This document shows positions 34,824 to 46,221 of a DNA stretch of 64,000 nt, one piece after another (within the stretch, counting starts at the first letter, position 1; every line of letters begins with the position of its first letter). A program made the translations under genes and the position numbers. The notes under the pieces are model-generated. The model was not told the origin of the DNA. It saw only the letters and a program-made list of their open reading frames with translations, and did no database searches. Source of the DNA: Thermoguttaceae bacterium (GTDB lineage: Bacteria > Planctomycetota > Planctomycetia > Pirellulales > Thermoguttaceae); the NCBI GenBank assembly GCA_017939795.1, contig JAGBAA010000036.1:1-64000 (forward strand), read 5' to 3'.

Positions 34824-34852
34824 TTGACATTTCACCGCAAAACGGGTAAAAT
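34824..34852 (+). promoter_or_regulatory. promoter of the kinase operon (TTGACA-17-TAAAAT)
   Basis: TTGACA 34824-34829 and TAAAAT 34847-34852 with exactly 17 bases between. The kinase ATG is 270 bases downstream, so the mRNA would have a long A/T-rich leader with no other recognisable element. Bases 34574-34823 hold nothing else I can name. Confidence 0.65.
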
Positions 34853-35122: not shown

Positions 35123-38100
35123 ATGTCCATTAAAGACTCCTCAACTTTGATGAAAATAATCGAACGCAGCAAACTGCTTCAGGCTTCCGAACTGGAACAG
35201 GCGCAGGCTTTGAGCGTCCAGTACCCGGACAGTCAGGGATTTCTCAAGGCACTCTACCGCCGAAAAATGATCACGCGCTGGCAGGCGGGACAGCTTCTTG
35301 CCGGAAATTCTTCATTTTTCCTTGGAAAATACAAACTGGTCGAGCTGATCGGCGCAGGCGGTATGGGAAGAGTCTTCCGTGCGGAACACACGGCCATGAA
35401 CCGAAGTGTCGCGCTGAAGATCATTTCCCGGGAACTGGTCACGGATCCGGAAGCCCAGAAACTGTTCCTGAATGAAGCCCGCGCGATCGCGTCCCTGAAT
35501 CATCCGAATATCGTGCACGCATACAGTGTGGACAAAGAGGGGGACCGGTACTATATCGTGATGGAGTACGTGGAAGGATCCGACCTCGAAAAGATCGTGC
35601 AGAAGGACGGACCGATCGAACAGGGCAAAGCTGCGCGCTTCATTTTACAGGCCGCCGGCGCACTGCACCATGCGCATGAGCGAAACATGATCCACTGCGA
35701 CATCAAACCGGCAAATCTTCTGGTCAACGAAGCGGATCAGGTCAAGATCCTCGACATGGGGCTGGCCCGATTCCAGTCCAAATCAGATTCCAAGGGGAAA
35801 CGCGGAATGGAAAATGCCGCAGATCCGGCAAATGAGGAAGAAGGTACTCCGCAGATCATCGGCACGGTCGACTATATGGCGCCGGAAGTTGCGGAGGATC
35901 AGGCGAATGCGTCGCCGCTTTCCGACATTTATTCTCTGGGATGCGTCATGTACTTCCTGCTGACCGGCCAGATCCCCTTTCCTGGAGACACGATCCCCGA
36001 ACGGATCATCAAGCATCAGTGCGGCGAACCGAAAGATCCGCAGGAACTCCAGCCGGAACTTTCCTCCCATCTGTGCGAGATCTGCCTGAAAATGATGGCG
36101 CGCGAACCTTCCGAGCGTTTCCAGAATGGAGAGGAAATCATGGAGGCTCTGAGCAAATGGCTCGCAGAATCCCGCCATGAAGACAGTGAAGGCTCTTCTA
36201 TCTCTCTGGATTTCTCCCAGTTCATCCAGGCTGGAGATCCTCATTCCAGCAGGATCGGCGCAAGCAAAAAGTCCGGTTTCTTCGGGAAATCAGGGAAACA
36301 GAAGAAATCCGAAGAAACGGAAGCCGCCGAAGGAAGCTGGGCCCTCAGGGAAAGTACGCTTCAAAAAACGACCCAGGATGAACGTTCCGCCGCACAGTCT
36401 TCTTCCAAAAATGAAACGGAAAAAGACATTCCGGACTTCGGAATGCTTGGAGAACTGGTCTCAGGGAAGGATGTACCCAAAGAAGATCTCGATCTCCCGG
36501 ATTTCCTTGGAATGCAGTTCGGCAAAACAGCCTCCGGCTCCAAAGAAAATGTTGAAGCACCCAAGACTTCCGGATCAGAAACCCTCAATGACCTGAAAAC
36601 GAAAAAGGAGAACGAGGAACGGGAAAACGAACCGGCCGTGATCGAGGAGACTGAAATTTCAAAAGAACCTCAAAAATCGGAAGAAGGTCTCTCGGAAGAG
36701 CTCAAATTCACAGAATCGACGCCGAAATCGAAAAAAAATGCAGAAAAAGAAGAAACGGGAACTCCGGGATCTGCAGAACCGTCCGACCGGCTGATCCTGG
36801 ATGAGACGGAAAAAAATGAGGAATCTGACGATACGGTCATCGCAAGCGACGAGGAGCTTGCAGAAGCCGCCGCCTCAGTGAACCGTCCAGATAATTCAGA
36901 AAAATCAAAGCCTCAAACACAGGATCTGATGGATCTCCTGAAAAACGGCATCGTGCAGGAAAAAAATTCGGAAGAGGAACTGGATGTTCCGGAAACATTT
37001 TCCCTCTCTTCTTTTGAGCCCAGGAATTCCCATTCGAAGAAATCCGAAAAGGAAGGAACGAATGAGGACCTTCTGAAAAGCGGATCCGAAAAAGAATCCG
37101 ATCAGTCGGCACGCCCAGTCTTGAAAAAACCGCGTCAAACGTGGAAAAATACGGCAGGAGATTCCGGGATCGAAGCCCCCCAAAAAACCGAGAAGGCTCA
37201 CACATCCGGAAAGAACACAGCGTCCGGAGGCAAGGTCGGCGGACTGACGGCCGTTCTGGCGAAGAGCCGGGACATCCTGGCCAGACTGACGACGTTCTGG
37301 GGAAATTTAACGAGAAAACAGAAGCTCCTCTTCGGCGGGATCGGCGGCGGTATTCTGCTCATTCTTCTGATCGTCCTGATCCTCATTTTCTGTCTTGGCG
37401 GAGAAGATCCTGCAAAAACTGCGCCTGCGGCTTCGGTAAATGAAAGTGAAGAGGTCATCGAGGAGGTCGTCGAAGATGTTTCCGAAGACGACGCTGCAAA
37501 AGATGCCGCAAAAGAGGCCGATCCGGAAAATGCGGAAGCCGCGGAAAATGCGGACGGCTCTGATGAAGCGAAAGGATCGGAATCGGATGGTGCCGGCAAT
37601 TCTGACGAAGCCGGGAATGCCTCTGGAGACGATGCAGTGAAAAAGGCACCGGACGGCGAAGAAAAATCGGCAGACGGGGGATCCGACGAGGAATCGGATG
37701 GTAAATCCAACGGAAAAACCGACGAAACTGAAGATCCCGCAGATGCAGCAGGAAAAGAGAATGCGGAAACTGCTGGAAACGGCGGAGACGAAAACACAGT
37801 CTCAACCGACGGTTCGTCAGAAGAAACGGCTCCGAATCAGGAAGATGCTTCCGCTGAAAGTATCGCAGAAAATGCCGACGGGACAGAAAATGCTTCGGAT
37901 GAAAATGCCGGTGCAGATGCAGACTCTGACGCAGTAAAGGCAGAGGAAGAGGCAAAGAAGGCAGAGGAAGAAAAAGCCAAAGCTGAAGCGGAAGCTAAAG
38001 CCAAGGAAGAGGAAGAAGCCCGGAAAAAGGCGGAAGAAGAAGCAAAGGCAAAAGAAGAAGAGGAGAAAGCTAAAGCGGAAGAGGAAGCGCGCAAAAAGGA

Positions 38101-39238
38101 AGCCGCCGAACCGTTCAAGAACTCTCCGTCTGCCGTTGAGCTTCCGGCCCTGGACGGCGAAAAACTGGAACTGACGCAGATCTCTCATGCGGGGATGGAC
38201 GTTTCGGTCTCGCTGCTTGGCGGCGAAACGGCATTTCCGGTGAAATCAAGCGGCAAGAAACCGGGAACGCAGACCAAATTCTTTACGATTTCGGAAACGG
38301 ACGGCGACGTCCCAACGTGGGAGATCCGCTACCGGATGCGGGAAGAAGAAAGCCTGGCGGCGACCCTGACTCTTGAGGAAAATTCACTTTACTTCCAATG
38401 GAATGCCGCAGAAGAAATTCCTCCGAAAGACCTCCCGGTCCTCGGAAACTGTGCGCTGAAGCTGACGTGCAATGAAAAGGAGCACGTACTGGCCCTGCGT
38501 CAGGCAGTGGAGCTTGAAACGCTCGTTCTCGGCGGCAAGACCGGCGGAGCGACCGTGAAGAGCGGCAAACTGGAGATCCCGTTCCCGTCTCTTGAAACGG
38601 TCTATGTAGAGATAGTGCGGGTCGGAAAATTCCCGGAAGATGCCAAAGTACTTCAGCTTCCGGAACCGATGAAAGCATCCGAGCTCTCCAAGCGGAATCC
38701 GCTAACGGTGAACTTCAAATTTGAGGACGCAAATGGAAACGCCCAGAACCCGCTGATTTTCCAATTCGTCCCAATGTTCTCGAACAATTTCGCGGGAACA
38801 CTGACGCCGGTCCTTTCCATTCCGGGAGGATCACTGATGAAGCAGATCGAAATGGCCAAAAATCCGCAGATCGACATCCAGGTCACCGACTGGAAGAAGC
38901 AGATCACGGCGATCGAGAAGAAAAATGAAGATGTTGCCGCTCATGCACGCAGTCCGCAGGACACAGCGAAGGTCGCGCAGCTGGAGCTTCAGATCTGGTT
39001 CGTGGATGTTCTGAAACAGCTTGACGGCGCAGATTTTGAGTATCGCATCTATGCAGATCTGGATGGAAACCAGGTCGATCTGGTGACCAGCCGCTACATT
39101 TCGCCGGAAGACAAAAAAGCCGCCAAAAAAACGGCAAGATCCTCAAAAGGACGGCGTGCACAGAATGACGGCGGCGATTCGGAAGAAAACAGTGAAGAAG
39201 CCGGCGGATTCGGCGGATTTGAAGGAATGAAATTCTGA
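35123..39238 (+). CDS. membrane Ser/Thr protein kinase with acidic linkers and a duplicated C-terminal domain
   Basis: 1371 residues; AGGA 9-10 bases before the ATG. Residues 1-65 are a helical N-terminal segment seen in planctomycete kinases (RRKMITRWQAGQLLAG). The kinase domain (about 69-345) has IGAGGMGRVF, VALKI (Lys 99), MIHCDIKPANLL, KILDMGLARF (DMG for DFG), GTVDYMAPEVAED and SDIYSLGCVMYFLLTG. The catalytic loop is HCD, not HRD, so it is a non-RD kinase. Residues 370-730 are acidic and disordered, one membrane span follows at about 735-757 (GGIGGGILLILLIVLILIFC), then a Glu/Ala/Lys-rich coil (AEEEAKAKEEEEKAKA). The last 340 residues are a beta-rich domain homologous to the next gene. 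It probably signals across the membrane. Confidence 0.88.
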   Translation: MSIKDSSTLMKIIERSKLLQASELEQAQALSVQYPDSQGFLKALYRRKMITRWQAGQLLAGNSSFFLGKYKLVELIGAGGMGRVFRAEHTAMNRSVALKIISRELVTDPEAQKLFLNEARAIASLNHPNIVHAYSVDKEGDRYYIVMEYVEGSDLEKIVQKDGPIEQGKAARFILQAAGALHHAHERNMIHCDIKPANLLVNEADQVKILDMGLARFQSKSDSKGKRGMENAADPANEEEGTPQIIGTVDYMAPEVAEDQANASPLSDIYSLGCVMYFLLTGQIPFPGDTIPERIIKHQCGEPKDPQELQPELSSHLCEICLKMMAREPSERFQNGEEIMEALSKWLAESRHEDSEGSSISLDFSQFIQAGDPHSSRIGASKKSGFFGKSGKQKKSEETEAAEGSWALRESTLQKTTQDERSAAQSSSKNETEKDIPDFGMLGELVSGKDVPKEDLDLPDFLGMQFGKTASGSKENVEAPKTSGSETLNDLKTKKENEERENEPAVIEETEISKEPQKSEEGLSEELKFTESTPKSKKNAEKEETGTPGSAEPSDRLILDETEKNEESDDTVIASDEELAEAAASVNRPDNSEKSKPQTQDLMDLLKNGIVQEKNSEEELDVPETFSLSSFEPRNSHSKKSEKEGTNEDLLKSGSEKESDQSARPVLKKPRQTWKNTAGDSGIEAPQKTEKAHTSGKNTASGGKVGGLTAVLAKSRDILARLTTFWGNLTRKQKLLFGGIGGGILLILLIVLILIFCLGGEDPAKTAPAASVNESEEVIEEVVEDVSEDDAAKDAAKEADPENAEAAENADGSDEAKGSESDGAGNSDEAGNASGDDAVKKAPDGEEKSADGGSDEESDGKSNGKTDETEDPADAAGKENAETAGNGGDENTVSTDGSSEETAPNQEDASAESIAENADGTENASDENAGADADSDAVKAEEEAKKAEEEKAKAEAEAKAKEEEEARKKAEEEAKAKEEEEKAKAEEEARKKEAAEPFKNSPSAVELPALDGEKLELTQISHAGMDVSVSLLGGETAFPVKSSGKKPGTQTKFFTISETDGDVPTWEIRYRMREEESLAATLTLEENSLYFQWNAAEEIPPKDLPVLGNCALKLTCNEKEHVLALRQAVELETLVLGGKTGGATVKSGKLEIPFPSLETVYVEIVRVGKFPEDAKVLQLPEPMKASELSKRNPLTVNFKFEDANGNAQNPLIFQFVPMFSNNFAGTLTPVLSIPGGSLMKQIEMAKNPQIDIQVTDWKKQITAIEKKNEDVAAHARSPQDTAKVAQLELQIWFVDVLKQLDGADFEYRIYADLDGNQVDLVTSRYISPEDKKAAKKTARSSKGRRAQNDGGDSEENSEEAGGFGGFEGMKF

Positions 39239-39255
39239 TTCGCGAGTTCCGTTTT

Positions 39256-39301
39256 CCCAACGTCCGGACAAATAAAATCCCAACGTCCGGATAAACAAAA
39301 C
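39256..39301 (+). repeat. two direct 23-base repeats between kinase and paralogue genes
   Basis: CCCAACGTCCGGACAAATAA at 39256 and CCCAACGTCCGGATAAACAA at 39279, repeated head to tail with a 23-base period in the 125-base gap. Could be a regulator-binding pair or a simple duplication. Confidence 0.6.
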
Positions 39302-39363
39302 AGGCGAGGCCGATTTCGGACCGAAAAACAAAAATTTGAGTCGAATTGATTTTGGAGTAAAGC

Positions 39364-40605
39364 ATGCTGAAAAAAATGCGTTTTCCTTACGTTTCGTTTT
39401 TCGCGAGTCTTCTGCTGCTCCTGCTTCTTGGCGGGACGGTCATGGCGGGCGTTTTTGACGGAGTTCCAAAATATGTTGCGCTGCCGGACTGCACGAAAGA
39501 GAGCACGGTGAAACTTTTCCCGCTCGCGACAGGAGAGAAAGCCGTGACGGTCGAACTTTTGGGCGGAGAGATCGCCATTCCGCAGAAGGGGACCAAAAAA
39601 AAGAAGAAATCAGATCCGGATGCGCAGACTCCTCCGCCGGCGGAATTCTATTCGCTTGAAGAAGGAAAAGCGAAGGATCCGAAGCTGACGGTCTGGAACA
39701 TCAAATTCAACCAGCGCGGACGAAAGGCAACGTGCGCAACGATCGCACTTGACGGAGAATCCGTAAAATTCAAGTGGCGGACGAAAGTTCCGCAGAAATT
39801 CCTTCTTCCGGTCGGAAACTGTGCGCTGAAATTGACCTGCGGCGAAGAGAAACACTACATTGCGCTGCGTAAGCCGGTTCAGATGGAGTCGATCCTTCTG
39901 AATCCCAAAACGGGGAGCGGTTCCATCAAAAGCCAGAAAATGGAGATCCCGTTTCCGTCTCCGGACGCAATGTTTCTGGAAGTACAGAATCTGGGAAAAT
40001 TCAAACCAGGAGATACTTCCGTCACCTTCCCGCCGGTGACCCGTCTTTCGGATATTTCGCCGCGTGAGCCGCTCCAGATCAATTTCACGTTCACCGACCC
40101 CAATGGAAATGCTGCCCAGCTTTTCTATTTTGATGTTCTGGTGGCGTACAAAACGAACTTCAGTGCATCTCTCATTCCGCCAAAAGAACTGGCTCGGGAT
40201 TTTGGCCAGCGGCTCCAGATCGCGTCAGATCCGCAGGTCGACATTCAGATCACGAACATGCAGAAGAAGATACAGTCGATCAAAAAGAAACTGGACGAAC
40301 AGGAAGCATGGCGGCGAAATGCGAAAGATACGCAGGAGATCGCCATGCTCCAGCAGCAGATCTCAATGATCGAGAAACTGCGTTCCATTCACGATGCAGA
40401 CGCAAAAGTCCGGCTCTTCATCGACTATGGCGAAGCGCAGGCGGACATCATCCTGACGGAAACGCTGACAGTTGAACAGCGTGAAGAAGCGAAGCAGAGT
40501 AAAAGAAAAGGCGGAAAGCAAACTGCAAAAGAAACCGGGAATGCGGACGCCGATGAAGAGGAAGCCGAAGACGGCGAAAATGGTTTTGAAGGGATGAAAT
40601 TTTAG
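39364..40605 (+). CDS. secreted paralogue of the kinase C-terminal domain
   Basis: 413 residues. GGAG lies 7-8 bases before the ATG. Signal peptide: FPYVSFFASLLLLLLLGGTVMAG. From residue 40 on it parallels the kinase tail segment by segment: VTVELLGGEIAIP / VSVSLLGGETAFP, PVGNCALKLTCGEEKH / PVLGNCALKLTCNEKEH, SQKMEIPFPSPDAMFLEV / SGKLEIPFPSLETVYVEI, NFTFTDPNGNA / NFKFEDANGNA, DPQVDIQITNMQKKIQSIKKK / NPQIDIQVTDWKKQITAIEKK. Both proteins end in GFEGMKF. The conserved tail suggests a common partner. Function unknown. It is followed by the HEAT gene 11 bases on. Confidence 0.75.
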   Translation: MLKKMRFPYVSFFASLLLLLLLGGTVMAGVFDGVPKYVALPDCTKESTVKLFPLATGEKAVTVELLGGEIAIPQKGTKKKKKSDPDAQTPPPAEFYSLEEGKAKDPKLTVWNIKFNQRGRKATCATIALDGESVKFKWRTKVPQKFLLPVGNCALKLTCGEEKHYIALRKPVQMESILLNPKTGSGSIKSQKMEIPFPSPDAMFLEVQNLGKFKPGDTSVTFPPVTRLSDISPREPLQINFTFTDPNGNAAQLFYFDVLVAYKTNFSASLIPPKELARDFGQRLQIASDPQVDIQITNMQKKIQSIKKKLDEQEAWRRNAKDTQEIAMLQQQISMIEKLRSIHDADAKVRLFIDYGEAQADIILTETLTVEQREEAKQSKRKGGKQTAKETGNADADEEEAEDGENGFEGMKF

Positions 40606-40616
40606 CGGAGCGAACC

Positions 40617-41915
40617 ATGACGGGTTGCGGGAAAAAGACGAAACGGCAGAATGCGCTAAGCCTGACTCTCGGGGTCCTGCTCGCAGGTTCTGCCGCGTTG
40701 GAAATGAGTCCGACGGCGCAGGCGGAAGGACTTTCGGAGAAAGATGCGGAAACTGCGGCAAATATACAGGGACCGGAGGAACGGACAGAAAAACTGACTT
40801 TGGTCCCGGCTTCCGCCGACCGTCCTGCACTTCAGCCGGTCTGGAAGACGAAGACGGTCGATGAATGGGCAGGCGTTTTAGAGACTGCGGTTCCGGAAGC
40901 CCCAATGGAAGCAGATACGCGTTCGATCCCGACGATCCGTGAGCAATGGTACGCGGCGTACGCACTTGGCGAGTACGGCCAGGAGGCACTTTCTGCCGTC
41001 CCAGTCCTTTTGAAGCGTTTTGCACATGAAGCGGGAAAGGACGACGACGTCCGGGCCTGCATTCTTTACTCACTCGGCAAAATGCAGGCAGAAGACGCAT
41101 TTCCCATACTGCTCGAGGCATTGGAGTCCGACTATCCGCTCATTGCGCGCACGGCAGCACTGGCACTGGGAAGGTACCCCGAACGGCTCGCATCTCCGAA
41201 TGGGAAAGAGGCGGTAAAACGAATGCTCGGGCTCCTCCGGGAAAGTTCTGATCTTCAGATCCCGCTGGCGGCCAATTGTGCCGTGACGCTCTGGGGAGCC
41301 GGCGAGAAAACCGCGGTTTGCGAGTGGCTGATCTCCGCACTGAATTCCGAACGAAAGGACGCATTTACCCGGAATTTTGAAATCTACCAGGGATGCTCGG
41401 TCTGTCTGCAGCTGACGGAGCGTTTTGGAAAGGAAGATGTCCGCACTTCTTTCGAAAGCTGGACAGAAACCGGTCCCAAAGAGCCGCTTCCGAAAAATTC
41501 CCTGCCCGAGATTCTGGCGGAGCTGGCAAAAAGCGGATCCGATCTGGACGTAAAGCTCATCGCGTGCGAAACGTTGGCGAGTTTGGGAAGCTGGGTGCTC
41601 CCGGCAGTCCAAAAGTCCATGGGTGATCCGGAAAAAACGGACGAAATTGCAGACCGCCTGCTTTACGTACTGGCGCAGATCGACGGAGGATCGGCAGAAA
41701 CGGCAAAACTCCTTTTCCGTATCGTTTCAGATGAAAGCGCGCCGCTCCGTGTCCGCACCGCTGCAGTTCGCGGACTGGTATTCCTTTCAAAAGAAAAACA
41801 GAAAACGGCAGCGGAACTTCTGGTGAAGCTCCTGAATGCGGCAGAAGTTTCCGACGTTCTAGCGATGGAAGCCAGATTCATGCTTGATCGTCTGACGCAA
41901 TCTTCGGGAACCTGA
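40617..41915 (+). CDS. exported HEAT-repeat protein
   Basis: 432 residues. The N-terminus (KKTKRQNALSLTLGVLLAGSAALEMSPTAQAE) is a signal peptide. From about residue 105 HEAT-type helical pairs follow: QWYAAYALGEYGQEALSAVPVLLKRF, DVRACILYSLGKMQAEDAFPILLEAL, LIARTAALALGRY, VKLIACETLASLGSWVLPAVQKS, VRTAAVRGLVFLSKEKQKTAAELL. Such scaffolds bind proteins. It starts 11 bases after the kinase-tail paralogue, so the three genes 35123-41915 probably form one operon, and it may bind the shared extracytoplasmic domain. That link is inferred. Confidence 0.75.
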   Translation: MTGCGKKTKRQNALSLTLGVLLAGSAALEMSPTAQAEGLSEKDAETAANIQGPEERTEKLTLVPASADRPALQPVWKTKTVDEWAGVLETAVPEAPMEADTRSIPTIREQWYAAYALGEYGQEALSAVPVLLKRFAHEAGKDDDVRACILYSLGKMQAEDAFPILLEALESDYPLIARTAALALGRYPERLASPNGKEAVKRMLGLLRESSDLQIPLAANCAVTLWGAGEKTAVCEWLISALNSERKDAFTRNFEIYQGCSVCLQLTERFGKEDVRTSFESWTETGPKEPLPKNSLPEILAELAKSGSDLDVKLIACETLASLGSWVLPAVQKSMGDPEKTDEIADRLLYVLAQIDGGSAETAKLLFRIVSDESAPLRVRTAAVRGLVFLSKEKQKTAAELLVKLLNAAEVSDVLAMEARFMLDRLTQSSGT

Positions 41916-42067: not shown

Positions 42068-43741
42068 ATGGCGCGTCGTTTTTCCAAATCAGGCGGTTTT
42101 TCAAGCCTTGAGGTGAAGTGTCTTCTCCTGTTCAGCGTGTTTCTTGTGGGCGTCATGTCCGTGAGTTTCATGCTCTACTGGTACGTCACGGAATCGGTCG
42201 TCGAACAGCGCAACCCGGACACAGCCCGGCTTTTGGCGGATCGGGCGCTTTTGATCCGGCACTGGGGAAAACTGGAGTCGAAGAAGGAATTCCTCTGGGT
42301 CGTAAATCAGCTGACGGACCGGCTTTCCGAGCAGCAATACGAGTGGCGGATGGTCTCCCCCTATGCGCCGGAGGAAGAGAAGGATGAATTTGTCCGCGGC
42401 ATGCTTGCGGAAGCGGAAGCACAACCGGACGTCCAGCTTTCGGCACGCGGAGTGCTGGAGGGGGACAAGTACCTCTACTATCGGCCCGTTTATGCAGAAC
42501 AGACGTGCCTGGACCTTTGCCATAATGACCTGGATGCCGCGCAGCGATTGGCTCTTCCAGAAGACGCACTTCCCAGAGACCTGCTCCAGGTCGGCGATCT
42601 GATGACGATCCTGTGCGTCCAGATCCCCAACGGACCTACGCAGTCGGCGATCAACTGGTTTTGGAATATTCTTCTGACGGTGATGGTCCTGACAGTCTTT
42701 CTGGGGATCATCGCGTTCTACATCACGATCCGGTACGTCATCATTCGCCCGCTCCGTCATCTTCGTCAGGTCAGTGCTGCGATCGCGCACGGAAATATGG
42801 AGGTGCGCGCGGAACTCCACACCGGAGACGAATTTGAGTCGCTCGCTCAGGCATTCAACCGGATGCTTCGCGGACTGATCAATTCCCAGAGAGACCTGCG
42901 CCGCGCCAATCAGACATTGGATCAAAAGATCGAAGAGCTTGGCAGCGTCAACCTTCAGCTGCGCGAGATGAACCGGATCAAGAGCGATTTTCTTGCGACG
43001 ATGAGTCACGAACTTCGCACTCCGCTCAACAGTATCCTTGGTTTCAGTGAAGTCCTTGCGGACATCAAGTCTCTTGACGAACGCCAGAAACGCTACGTAC
43101 ACAACATCCGGAATTCCGGTCAGCTTCTGCTCGGGATGATCAATGACGTCCTGGATCTCGCCAAAATGGAAAGCGGCCGAATGCAGATCCATTTGACGGA
43201 CTTCTCTCTGGAACACATCATTTCCGCGCAGTGCGACATGGTGCGTCCGCTTGCGGAAAAGAAGAGGATCTCTCTTTCCTGGGAAGTTCCGAAGGGGCTC
43301 CCCCCGATCCACCTGGACCAGAACCGCGTACAGCAGATCCTGAACAACCTGCTCTCCAATGCCATCAAATTCACTCCGGAAGGCGGAGTCGTGAAAGTAA
43401 CGGTCATTCCCGAGGACATCGAGGACCGCGGCGACACTCCGCTGGAAAACGTCTTCTTTCGGCTCGAAGTCACCGACACAGGGATCGGGATGACGGAGGA
43501 GGATATGAAAAGCATTTTCGAAAAATTCCGTCAGGGAGCGTCTGCGATCGGTCAGAATCTCATGACGCGCGAGCATTCCGGATCTGGTCTGGGGCTCTCG
43601 ATCGTCCGGGAGATCTGCCGTCTCTTCCATGGAGACATATCGGTCAGCAGTACGCCGGGAGTCGGGTCGACCTTTACCGTACGGCTTCCGTGGCGAGTCC
43701 GGGAAACCGGCAATGAAGCTGAAAATGAAATCTATTTTTAG
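42068..43741 (+). CDS. membrane sensor histidine kinase with CxxxCH-containing periplasmic domain
   Basis: 557 residues. First span about 17-41 (VKCLLLFSVFLVGVMSVSFMLYW). The outer domain (about 42-195) is DUF3365/Tll0287-like: LLADRALLIRHWGKL, YEWRMVSPYAPEEEKDEF, YYRPVYAEQTCLDLCHND. The known family has a CxxCH haem motif after YY.P; here it is C-L-D-L-C-H (bases 42506-42523), a CxxxCH variant. Second span: NILLTVMVLTVFLGIIAFYI; then HAMP (RPLRHLRQVSAAIAHGNMEV), a coil, HisKA with the phospho-His (MSHELRTPLNSILGFSEV) and HATPase motifs (NNLLSNAIKFTPEGG, VTDTGIGM, GSGLGLSIV). It probably senses redox state or a gas. No response regulator is adjacent. Confidence 0.9.
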   Translation: MARRFSKSGGFSSLEVKCLLLFSVFLVGVMSVSFMLYWYVTESVVEQRNPDTARLLADRALLIRHWGKLESKKEFLWVVNQLTDRLSEQQYEWRMVSPYAPEEEKDEFVRGMLAEAEAQPDVQLSARGVLEGDKYLYYRPVYAEQTCLDLCHNDLDAAQRLALPEDALPRDLLQVGDLMTILCVQIPNGPTQSAINWFWNILLTVMVLTVFLGIIAFYITIRYVIIRPLRHLRQVSAAIAHGNMEVRAELHTGDEFESLAQAFNRMLRGLINSQRDLRRANQTLDQKIEELGSVNLQLREMNRIKSDFLATMSHELRTPLNSILGFSEVLADIKSLDERQKRYVHNIRNSGQLLLGMINDVLDLAKMESGRMQIHLTDFSLEHIISAQCDMVRPLAEKKRISLSWEVPKGLPPIHLDQNRVQQILNNLLSNAIKFTPEGGVVKVTVIPEDIEDRGDTPLENVFFRLEVTDTGIGMTEEDMKSIFEKFRQGASAIGQNLMTREHSGSGLGLSIVREICRLFHGDISVSSTPGVGSTFTVRLPWRVRETGNEAENEIYF

Positions 43742-44217: not shown

Positions 44218-46221
44218 ATGATTAGAAAAAAAATGAGCGGTAACGGAAATCCTGAAAACGGTTCAGAAGCTCCGGCTGCCCCGAATGCCGACACATCGCA
44301 GAATGATGTTTCCAATACGGCAAGTGAAAATTTCAGCGGATTTGCCGATCGGCAGGATAACGACGGCGCAGATTTTGCACGGATGGATCCGATCCGCGGA
44401 GAAAACGGCGGACATGAGGAAGCCGGATTTGCAGAGAATGGATTTTCCGACGCCGGTTTTTCGGGACAGGGCGGATATTCCGGTCGTTATGGATACGGCA
44501 GAAGAATGAATCAGGGTGACCGTTACTATGCCGACCGCACTGAATATGGGGACAGAAATGCGTATTCGGACCGTTCCTATGGCGACCGCGGCGCATCTTA
44601 TGGCGAAACTCAGGGATACGGCGACCGTTCCGGATATGAAGAACGCGGATATGGCGAACGTTTTTCCTATGGCAGCCGTCAGGGATACGGACGCAATTAC
44701 GGAAACCGCCAGGGATACGGAAACAACCGTCAGGGGTACGGAAATTACGGTGATCGTCAGGGGTACGGCGATCGAAATTACGGCGACCGCCAAGGGTATG
44801 GTGACCGCAGCTACAGCGACCGTCAGGGATATGGCGACAGAAACTACGGAGACCGTCAGAACTACGGAAATTATGGAGACCGTCAGGGGTACGGCGACCG
44901 AAATTATGGAGACCGTCAGGGGTACGGAAACTACGGTGACCGTCAGGGATACGGCAACTACGGAAACAATTACCGCTTCAACCGCATGCGTCCCCGCATG
45001 AACAAAATGCGCACGAGCAACGACCCTATCGTTGCGGCAGACCCGTTCAAAACGGATTCTGGTGAAGATCTGCAGGAAATCGCGATCTCCGGAATTCTTG
45101 AACTGCATCCAAACGGCTACGGCTTCCTTCGCAGTCCGGATGTGATGTATACCCGCCAGCTCATCGACCCGTTCGTTCCCGGCAATATGATCGAATGCTA
45201 CGGTCTGCGGGAAGGCGTCTTCTGCACGGGCATCATGACCCCCGGCCGCAAAAATCAGGGACCGCGTCTGAAAGAAATGTTGACAGTGGAAGGTAAGGAA
45301 CCCGAATCGTTCCTGAAAGTCCCCTCTTTTGATGACCTGACGGCCGTCATTCCGGAAAAATGGTACAATCTGGAAACTGGAATGGAGCCGATCACCACGC
45401 GCGTCATGGATCTTCTGACGCCGCTGGGACGCGGGCAGCGTGCTCTGATTGTTGCGCCGCCGCGTACGGGCAAAACGATGCTTCTGCAGCAGATCAGTAA
45501 TGCGATCTCCGTCAATCATCCAGAAGTCAAGCTCTTCGTGCTTCTGATCGATGAACGTCCGGAAGAAGTGACGGATATGCAGCGTGCTCTGAACGGCAAA
45601 GGCGAGGTCATCGCGAGCAGTCTGGACCGCGATATTGAGAGTCACGTACGTCTTTCCCAGCTCATGATCGAACGATGCAAGCGTCTGGCAGAAAACGGTC
45701 AGCACGTGGTCCTTCTGTTGGATTCGATCACGCGTCTTGCCCGTGCGTTCAACAAGTGGGTCGGAAATACCGGACGCACGATGAGCGGCGGCGTCGACAT
45801 CAAGGCAATGGACATTCCGAAAAAACTCTTCGCTACGGCACGTCAATTCGAGAATATCGAGATCGACGGGGAAGTCCGGGAAGGCGGTTCGTTGACGATC
45901 ATCGGGACGGCCCTCATCGAAACGGGAAGCCGAATGGATGAACTCATCTTCCAGGAATTCAAGGGGACCGGCAACATGGAGCTGGTTCTGGACCGCAGAC
46001 TGGCAGACCGCCGCATCTGGCCGGCGATGGACGTCAGTATGTCCGGCACACGCCGTGAAGAGAAACTTCTGAATCCGGAAGTGCTCCACGCCGTCACGCT
46101 CCTTCGCCGAACACTCGCTTCCATGAATCCAACGGATGCCATGGAACAACTGACGCAGAAGCTGCTGAAATACAAATCGAATGCAGAATTCCTCACACGG
46201 ATCCTTCAGGTGCGCGAGTAA
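44218..46221 (+). CDS. rho: Rho transcription termination factor with a large Gly/Tyr-rich disordered insert
   Basis: 667 residues against about 420 in E. coli. The C-terminal 390 residues are standard Rho: RNA-binding domain (ISGILELHPNGYGFLRSP), Walker A APPRTGKTMLLQQI, Walker B LFVLLIDERPEEVTDM, DSITRLARAFN, R-loop region NTGRTMSGGVD, EGGSLTIIGTALIETGSRMDE, DRRLADRRIWPAMDV. The N-terminal 275 residues are disordered: an acidic Asn/Asp/Ala part, then about 170 residues of imperfect GYGDRQ / NYGDRQ repeats. This Tyr-Arg-Gly composition resembles phase-separating RNA-binding proteins. The Rho-N helical domain is not evident. DNA of the repeat (about 44680-44965) is itself repetitive. Confidence 0.95.
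   Translation: MIRKKMSGNGNPENGSEAPAAPNADTSQNDVSNTASENFSGFADRQDNDGADFARMDPIRGENGGHEEAGFAENGFSDAGFSGQGGYSGRYGYGRRMNQGDRYYADRTEYGDRNAYSDRSYGDRGASYGETQGYGDRSGYEERGYGERFSYGSRQGYGRNYGNRQGYGNNRQGYGNYGDRQGYGDRNYGDRQGYGDRSYSDRQGYGDRNYGDRQNYGNYGDRQGYGDRNYGDRQGYGNYGDRQGYGNYGNNYRFNRMRPRMNKMRTSNDPIVAADPFKTDSGEDLQEIAISGILELHPNGYGFLRSPDVMYTRQLIDPFVPGNMIECYGLREGVFCTGIMTPGRKNQGPRLKEMLTVEGKEPESFLKVPSFDDLTAVIPEKWYNLETGMEPITTRVMDLLTPLGRGQRALIVAPPRTGKTMLLQQISNAISVNHPEVKLFVLLIDERPEEVTDMQRALNGKGEVIASSLDRDIESHVRLSQLMIERCKRLAENGQHVVLLLDSITRLARAFNKWVGNTGRTMSGGVDIKAMDIPKKLFATARQFENIEIDGEVREGGSLTIIGTALIETGSRMDELIFQEFKGTGNMELVLDRRLADRRIWPAMDVSMSGTRREEKLLNPEVLHAVTLLRRTLASMNPTDAMEQLTQKLLKYKSNAEFLTRILQVRE

What the first reader, a model, noticed from the sequence alone, without database searches (positions are those of the whole stretch)
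35123..41915. Kinase tail domain duplicated as a secreted protein in the same operon
The extracytoplasmic C-terminal domain of the kinase and the next gene's product are clear paralogues along their whole length, and both end in GFEGMKF. The third gene is an exported HEAT scaffold. This suggests a three-part sensing unit in which the free domain competes with or bridges to the kinase tail. I know of no described system with this layout.
Basis: partly seen in the sequence, partly recalled or inferred. Interest (0 to 1): 0.55.

Follow-up and report, generated by a model that had tools for sequence, protein, structure and literature searches.

The report
Kinase ectodomain copied as secreted protein
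In one small group of planctomycete bacteria the outside part of a membrane signalling kinase was copied next door as a separate exported protein, and that outside part turns out to belong to an undescribed domain family that these bacteria attach to several different signalling proteins.

Summary
Kinase 35123-39238, paralogue 39364-40605 and HEAT gene 40617-41915 lie on one strand; kinase tail and paralogue align over the whole mature length (34% identity, E 1e-67). The old unit is kinase tail plus exported HEAT, neighbours in 8 of 8 genomes of the genus and in 7 others of the family. The secreted copy (FREE) is young: one tandem duplication in the ancestor of 4 of those 8 genomes (clades 100/100 and 100/99). 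FREE keeps core positions and a C-terminal tip, mostly GG[MLF]xF, on a disordered tether; it lost 12 positions that all four tails keep, none the other way. The domain has a confident model and passes no Pfam or NCBIfam cutoff. Elsewhere in the class it sits behind kinase, J-like, zinc-ribbon-like, GAP1 and TM-only heads, and is secreted head-less a second time. Best reading: FREE is a soluble accessory ectodomain sharing one interaction with the kinase tail (perhaps the tip) and lacking another. Competition or bridging is untested: no complex could be predicted. New variant of a known kind.

The parts
34824..34852 (+). promoter-like site upstream of the kinase gene (TTGACA-17-TAAAAT)
   Evidence: consensus match 11 of 12, (4 promoter-like sites in the scanned stretch, shuffles mean 2.5); not evidence of function
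35123..39238 (+). membrane Ser/Thr kinase gene, 1371 aa
   Evidence: ORF; Pfam Pkinase 6e-55 at aa 70-334
35330..36124 (+). catalytic domain, aa 70-334; catalytic K, E, D, N and D residues present, HRD reads HCD and DFG reads DMG
   Evidence: invariant in 10 of 10 aligned kinases
37340..37396 (+). single strong hydrophobic (transmembrane) segment, aa 740-758
   Evidence: hydropathy
38117..39151 (+). extracytoplasmic tail domain, model residues 1-345: Ig-like sandwich (about 1-129), second sandwich (about 130-327) with helical hairpin 240-302
   Evidence: AlphaFold2 model m7dbe21da15bd, mean pLDDT 85.2, pTM 0.80, 10 sequences; VIA-align
39152..39235 (+). C-terminal tether ending in GFEGMKF; the tip is the last 5 residues (39221-39235)
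   Evidence: pLDDT under 50 at model residues 348-373; tip conservation
39256..39291 (+). 13-bp unit in two direct copies, 23 bp apart, in the tail-FREE gap; no other copy in the held genome
39364..40605 (+). FREE: secreted paralogue of the tail, 413 aa
39364..39447 (+). signal-peptide-like segment of FREE
   Evidence: hydropathy, (best 12-residue mean 2.73); no signal-peptide program available
39862..40602 (+). second half of FREE (sandwich, helical hairpin, tether), predicted alone; the tip is 40588-40602
   Evidence: AlphaFold2 model m661c3b326bb0, mean pLDDT 81.4, pTM 0.73, 9 sequences, last 31 residues under 50
40617..41915 (+). exported-looking HEAT-repeat protein, 432 aa; signal-peptide-like segment 40617-40724
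   Evidence: Pfam HEAT_2 4.9e-17, three stretches; hydropathy; neighbour of the tail gene in relatives

Best explanation
The conserved unit is a two-gene extracytoplasmic sensing module: a single-pass, non-RD (HCD) Ser/Thr kinase whose outside part is an undescribed planctomycete domain (an Ig-like sandwich, then a second sandwich with a helical hairpin), and an exported HEAT solenoid encoded directly behind it, which probably binds that outside part. In an ancestor of four species of this genus the 3' end of the kinase gene was duplicated in tandem and gained a signal peptide, giving FREE between kinase and HEAT. FREE kept core positions and the C-terminal tip on its flexible tether and lost a set of positions that the kinase tail still keeps. 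The most likely mechanism is that FREE is a soluble accessory ectodomain which still reaches the partner recognised through the tip or core and no longer makes the contact that couples the tail to kinase control, so that it tunes the kinase by sharing or occupying that partner. Shown: homology, one duplication, asymmetric loss, tip conservation, gene linkage of kinase tail and HEAT, a predicted fold. Inferred: binding of HEAT to the tail, the tip as a binding site, modulation of the kinase.
For: Tail and FREE homologous over the mature length. Tree of 20 domains: FREE copies of G000, G002, G006, G007 form one clade (100/100), tails of the same four another (100/99), the two are sisters (98/96) inside the genus. 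RecG and HEAT trees unite these four genomes (100/100 each); kinase catalytic domains unite the three of them that could be included (99/98). FREE is an open frame with a signal-like start in 4 of 4. HEAT follows the tail gene, or FREE, in 8 of 8 genus genomes and the tail gene in G019, G022, G029, G063, G076, G081, G082. Full HEAT orthologues: 16 of 119 family genomes, 16 of 16 with a tail match, 15 of 16 adjacent. Of 110 columns identical in three single-copy tails, 27 are kept in all 4 tails and all 4 FREE, 12 kept in all 4 tails and lost in FREE, 0 the reverse, 71 mixed. Last five residues: 65.8% pairwise identity over 11 proteins against 19.3% (residues 6-15 from the end) and 12.5% (16-35). 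Models: pLDDT 85.2 and 81.4.
Against: FREE is absent from half of the genus, so the module does without it there. No complex, expression or localisation data. The tip is missing in the G005 tail and in the 11 complete tail ends outside the genus that I aligned (one of them, G010, ends in an acidic stretch and KKKFF). HEAT is adjacent in two of these 11 (G022, G029), so the tip is unlikely to be the original HEAT contact. Matching of tail and FREE tips within a genome was tested and is weak: the true pairing ties with 3 others among 24, and over all columns 5 of 24 pairings score higher. The HEAT profile was built from genes already known to be adjacent, which inflates the linkage figure. 30 of 46 family genomes with the tail lack a full HEAT orthologue (many are incomplete assemblies). 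In G005 the gap before HEAT is 306 bp.
Confidence: 0.5

Rival explanations
1. FREE has left the kinase pathway: it is a secreted protein with its own ligand (matrix, cell surface or another protein), and its place in the operon only reflects how it arose.
For: Asymmetric loss of 12 tail-conserved positions and a longer FREE stem (0.46 against 0.25). The domain is used head-less and secreted in another family too (L167, L251), with no tail kinase in the 10 kb stretches read there.
Against: FREE stays between tail and HEAT in 4 of 4 genomes that have it, and each FREE copy ends in F like the tails.
Confidence: 0.27
2. The C-terminal xF tip is a degradation or processing mark (for example for a PDZ-type periplasmic protease); FREE and tail share it because both are turned over the same way, not because they bind a signalling partner.
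For: A conserved terminal F behind a disordered, charged tether in both paralogues. That PDZ proteases such as DegS and Prc read C-terminal residues is recalled, not tested here.
Against: The exact GMKF-stop form ends no other gene of the held genome, which would be odd for a general mark; looser forms were not searched.
Confidence: 0.13
3. FREE is a by-product of duplication with little or no function, on its way to loss.
For: Limited to one clade of 4 genomes.
Against: Four intact copies; the other three are 44-50% identical to the window's, with 27 columns invariant across four tails, four FREE copies and three single-copy tails and a confident model for the half that was predicted.
Confidence: 0.1

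Closest known systems
Hanks-type membrane Ser/Thr kinases of Planctomycetota with extracytoplasmic C-terminal domains (survey PMC11032199)
   Same: Cytoplasmic kinase, single TM, periplasmic C-terminal domain; the passages read name TPR, WD40, sulfatase-modifying and DUF1080 domains as outside parts.
   Different: The outside domain here passes no Pfam or NCBIfam cutoff and is not among those named in the passages read; a free exported copy and an exported HEAT partner are encoded next door.
PASTA kinases (PknB/Stk1, NF033483)
   Same: Kinase, TM, outside domain layout.
   Different: 288.5 bits against a cutoff of 450; no PASTA family among Pfam matches at E up to 1.
WalK with its accessory proteins YycH and YycI (PMC7355866, listing and start of abstract only)
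   Same: Accessory membrane proteins of a membrane kinase; that they are operon-encoded, extracytoplasmic and resemble each other is recalled.
   Different: There a histidine kinase, and (recalled) the accessories are not copies of the kinase's own outside domain; here one is, and it is soluble.
GTPase-associated protein GAP1-N2 systems (PMC7159879, passages read)
   Same: The same outside domain is fused behind GAP1-N2 and GAP1-M in another planctomycete family (L252, Pfam 94.8 and 57.7 bits); the paper reports C-terminal TMs and sometimes cadherin domains on GAP1.
   Different: The window has no GAP1 part; whether their cadherin calls include this domain could not be checked.

Membership tests
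Hanks-type Ser/Thr kinase | Pfam protein kinase domain above cutoff | tested here: met
   186.9 bits, cutoff 31.7
Hanks-type Ser/Thr kinase | catalytic Lys, Glu, Asp, Asn and Mg-binding Asp | tested here: met
   K99, E118, D193, N198, D211 invariant in 10 of 10 aligned kinases
Hanks-type Ser/Thr kinase, RD subtype | Arg before the catalytic Asp | tested here: not met
   HCD in 10 of 10
PASTA kinase (Stk1/PknB) | NCBIfam equivalog cutoff and PASTA repeats | tested here: not met
   288.5 of 450 bits; no PASTA family in Pfam at E up to 1
HEAT-repeat proteins | Pfam HEAT family above cutoff | tested here: met
   HEAT_2 62.4 bits, cutoff 27.7, three stretches
Immunoglobulin-like beta sandwich | fold match to Ig-like domains | tested here: inconclusive
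   first half: top row 8s80_A, an S-layer protein, Z 6.3, rmsd 2.5, 81 aligned, model 1-128, with antibody and TCR chains filling most rows below at Z 4.7-5.1; second half: 9qbj_D Z 5.0, rmsd 3.6, 105 aligned, and nanobody 6i2g_A Z 4.7, rmsd 3.7, 108 aligned; all below 8; Foldseek no E up to 0.001
Ligand or partner competitor (decoy) of the kinase | FREE binds the same partner as the kinase tail | not testable with these tools
   complexes cannot be submitted; no binding data

The most novel reading that the evidence does not exclude
The tail domain is a shared extracytoplasmic input module of planctomycetes that plugs one kind of outside cue, or one envelope partner, into kinases, GAP1 conflict proteins, J-like proteins and zinc-ribbon proteins; head-less secreted copies such as FREE are diffusible versions that set the gain of that input, in this genus through a C-terminal GG[MLF]xF-type docking tip.
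Probability: 0.2. Interest if true: 0.7.

Novelty: new variant of a known kind. Interest (0 to 1): 0.48.

Why it matters
What planctomycete membrane kinases sense is, as far as I know, largely open. This locus gives an outside domain with a confident predicted fold, a probable protein partner encoded next door, and a natural before-and-after comparison (genomes with and without the soluble copy), so that input and tuning of such a kinase become testable. If the domain means the same thing behind GAP1 heads, a proposed conflict system would share the same unknown outside cue.

Tried and rejected
HEAT burst at the duplication: the first HEAT tree showed a long stem for the four FREE genomes (1.44). 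With RecG, kinase, HEAT and tail trees built alike under one simpler model, the stem is of the size of the tip branches in each; dropped.

Tips matching within a genome as a sign of co-evolution: over the last eight columns the true pairing shares the top score with 3 other pairings among 24; over all columns 5 of 24 score higher. The DNA of the tips differs at synonymous sites. Neither recent gene conversion nor co-evolution is claimed.

Repeat in the tail-FREE gap as a regulatory site: only the two local copies in the held genome; left as an observation.

Fold identification: Foldseek against solved structures gave no E up to 0.001 for either model; VIA-align stayed below Z 8, and for the second model the top rows lie on the helical hairpin alone. 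A missing match is no evidence of a new fold. One of the five models of the second job was poor (mean pLDDT 52.8). A profile of the domain against PDB sequences gave best E 0.0083, over profile positions 229-283 of a release factor, taken as chance.

Linkage statistic: Fisher p 3.7e-8 for HEAT and tail (16 of 46 against 0 of 73 genomes) is not relied on. The HEAT profile was trained on 13 of those 16 genomes (the other three are G007, G082, G060), and the bit-score line (230.8 against the next 159.1) was drawn after seeing the list. One search listed 35 of 119 genomes at E up to 1e-20; the 19 below the line were not counted. They include fragments in G036 (with a tail) and G008 (no tail match), and weaker homologues in G084, G027, G085 (with a tail) and G083 (no tail match).

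Rows dropped in the head census: loci L051, L053, L054, L190, L194, L195, L198 were left out as second copies of other rows (judged by equal contig length or sequence) or as partial; domain rows under 220 residues and matches above E 1e-5 were also left out. Seven rows cut by contig ends stayed in the tree without a head label. The J pattern probably missed J-like heads in L192, L196, L262 and L264, and a zinc-ribbon-like head (L253 1634-3352) and a GAP1-like head (L253 3426-6035) were counted as TM. Of three 'other' rows, L021 is a tail cut off from its kinase by a run of N; L026 and L172 are unresolved. The tree is of the quick kind, with two long branches flagged as joined.

Reach of the genome scans: one search scored at most 6 and at most 5 candidates a genome, so counts there are lower bounds; the order and class samples contain genomes of the family as well.

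Literature: seven answered searches. In the rows listed (one search listed 10 of 43 papers; one search found none) I saw no paper on this layout or domain. Subscription journals and preprints are mostly not held.
Full report
What is there. Three genes run on the + strand from 35123 to 41915. The kinase (1371 aa) has its catalytic domain at aa 70-334, one strong hydrophobic segment at aa 740-758, a long low-complexity stretch, and a C-terminal domain from about aa 999. The next gene (413 aa, here FREE) begins with a signal-like segment and is homologous to that C-terminal domain over its mature length: 34% identity over 382 columns, E 1e-67. A search of the own genome finds no third copy. The third gene encodes a HEAT protein (Pfam HEAT_2 62.4 bits) with a signal-like start. 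The gaps are 125 bp and 11 bp.

Catalysis. In an alignment of ten kinases of this type from the genus and family, the catalytic Lys99, Glu118, Asp193, Asn198 and Asp211 are invariant; the HRD motif reads HCD and the DFG motif DMG in all ten. The kinase looks active but non-RD.

The old unit and the young part. In the eight held genomes of the genus (85-93% complete) the tail domain is found once in four (G001, G003, G004, G005) and twice in four (G000, G002, G006, G007). In the single-copy genomes the tail gene is followed directly by HEAT, so that the absence of FREE at this place is seen and not only inferred from gaps in the assembly; in the others FREE lies between. Kinase head and tail are read without a break in G000, G005 and G006. 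In G003 a run of N interrupts them on one scaffold. In G001, G002 and G004 head and tail are on different contigs, probably broken in the low-complexity linker. For G007 no head of this orthologue was found (best match 47%).

Timing. In a tree of 20 domain sequences the four FREE copies are one clade (100/100), the four tails of the same genomes another (100/99), and the two are sisters (98/96) nested among the single-copy tails. RecG and HEAT trees unite the same four genomes at 100/100, and kinase catalytic domains unite the three that could be included at 99/98. One tandem duplication in the ancestor of the four explains this.

What FREE kept and lost. Of 110 columns identical in the single-copy tails of G001, G003 and G004, 27 are kept in all four tails and all four FREE copies, 12 are kept in all four tails and lost in at least three of four FREE copies, none is kept in all FREE and lost in tails, and 71 are mixed. 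The 12 are, in model numbering, T53, E78, L109, K121, T135, Y163, R168, G227, K300, E308, G317 and T324. The tail is the conservative copy and FREE the derived one.

The tip. Both proteins end in a stretch that the models leave disordered (pLDDT under 50 over the last 26 and 31 residues). In 11 proteins (tail and FREE of four genomes, tails of G001, G003 and G004) the last residue is F in 11 of 11, and the last five residues have 65.8% pairwise identity, against 19.3% for residues 6-15 and 12.5% for residues 16-35 from the end. GG[MLF]xF fits 8 of the 11; the window's two proteins read EGMKF and the G006 FREE copy IEFKF. The tip is absent in the G005 tail and in the 11 complete tail ends outside the genus that were aligned; one of these, from G010, ends in an acidic stretch and KKKFF. 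This is the pattern of a short binding or processing motif; its partner is unknown.

The HEAT link. HEAT lies directly behind the tail gene or FREE in 8 of 8 genomes of the genus and behind the tail gene in G019, G022, G029, G063, G076, G081 and G082 (in G082 only the end of the tail is on the contig). In a scan of 119 family genomes, 16 have an orthologue of 230 bits or more; 16 of these 16 have a tail match, and 15 of 16 are adjacent, G060 being the exception. The profile was built from adjacent genes of 13 of the 16, so only G007, G082 and G060 lie outside the training set. Thirty of 46 genomes with a tail lack a HEAT orthologue of that score, so the pairing is common in parts of the family and not universal.

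The domain. The model of the tail is confident (mean pLDDT 85.2, pTM 0.80, 10 sequences). The first half, residues 1-129, resembles Ig-like domains weakly: the top row is an S-layer protein at Z 6.3 (rmsd 2.5, 81 aligned), and antibody and TCR chains fill most rows below at Z 4.7-5.1. The second half, predicted alone from FREE (pLDDT 81.4, pTM 0.73, 9 sequences), is a sandwich interrupted by a helical hairpin; 9qbj_D scores Z 5.0 over 105 residues and nanobody 6i2g_A Z 4.7 over 108, while the best rows, up to Z 6.7, lie on the hairpin alone. No Foldseek match reaches E 0.001. No Pfam or NCBIfam model passes its cutoff on FREE.

Where else it occurs. A profile finds the domain in 46 of 119 family genomes and 69 of 296 genomes sampled from the order; a broader profile finds it in 53 of 397 genomes sampled from the class. 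The samples overlap, and few candidates a genome were scored, so the last two are lower bounds. Apart from kinases the heads are: a J-like N-terminus (my reading of a recalled motif; L260, L261, L263, L265, L270), zinc-ribbon-like N-termini (L162, L163, L164, L170, L171; Pfam and NCBIfam scores below their cutoffs, for example TIGR02098 at 18.0 of 20.9 bits in L162), GAP1-N2 plus GAP1-M (L252; L257 and L258 by resemblance), TM only, and a J-like head with two FGE-sulfatase stretches (L192; L196 by resemblance). Of 79 domain rows the script labelled 36 kinase, 14 TM, 7 cut, 6 secreted, 5 zinc ribbon, 5 J, 3 GAP1 and 3 other. The secreted form needs two origins on that quick tree: the window's clade, and L167 with L251 in another family. 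L167 is followed by a short protein with a signal-like start and one TPR family just above cutoff (TPR_14, 26.4 of 23.5 bits). L251 is followed by a different, 983-aa ORF that was not searched.

How it most likely works. A domain carried outside the membrane by proteins with very different inside heads is most simply an input or docking module. The HEAT protein is the best candidate partner in this family. FREE arose from the kinase, stayed in the operon, and kept core and tip but not the whole conserved set. I read it as a soluble accessory ectodomain that shares a partner with the tail and tunes the kinase. Binding and tuning are inference.

Organisms. Two genus members have named counterparts of equal contig length: L051 (Planctomycetia bacterium S1R_St_39, as G003) and L053 (S1R_St_60, as G005).

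Literature. Passages of PMC11032199 name TPR, WD40, sulfatase-modifying and DUF1080 domains on the outside of planctomycete kinases. Passages of PMC7159879 describe GAP1 systems with C-terminal TMs and sometimes cadherin domains. PMC7355866 was seen as a listing with the start of its abstract. In the rows listed by seven answered searches I saw nothing on this layout.

Noticed in passing
42068-43741 +: A HAMP histidine kinase lies 152 bp behind HEAT, with a CLDLCH motif in its presumed outside loop; 70% identical orthologues follow HEAT in G001 and G004. Behind two other tail kinases (L060, L186) the next gene is a PAS histidine kinase.
   Followed up: partly
44218-46221 +: Transcription terminator Rho with a long N-terminal stretch rich in Gly-Tyr-Asp-Arg-Gln repeats before its RNA-binding domain.
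   Followed up: no
39256-39291: A 13-bp unit in two direct copies, 23 bp apart, in the tail-FREE gap; no other copy in the held genome.
   Followed up: yes
L252 2519-5071, L257 1444-4008, L258 1263-3848: The same outside domain sits behind GAP1-N2 and GAP1-M domains (Pfam run on L252 only) in another planctomycete family.
   Followed up: partly
L192 2220-5903, L196 5161-8841: J-like N-terminus, TM, two FGE-sulfatase stretches and the tail domain in one protein (Pfam run on L192 only).
   Followed up: partly
L167 4590-6353: A second, independent head-less secreted copy of the domain, followed by a protein with a signal-like start and weak TPR matches.
   Followed up: partly
L253 1634-6035: Two tandem genes carry the domain side by side, one behind a zinc-ribbon-like head and one behind a GAP1-like head; their domains are sisters on the quick tree.
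   Followed up: no
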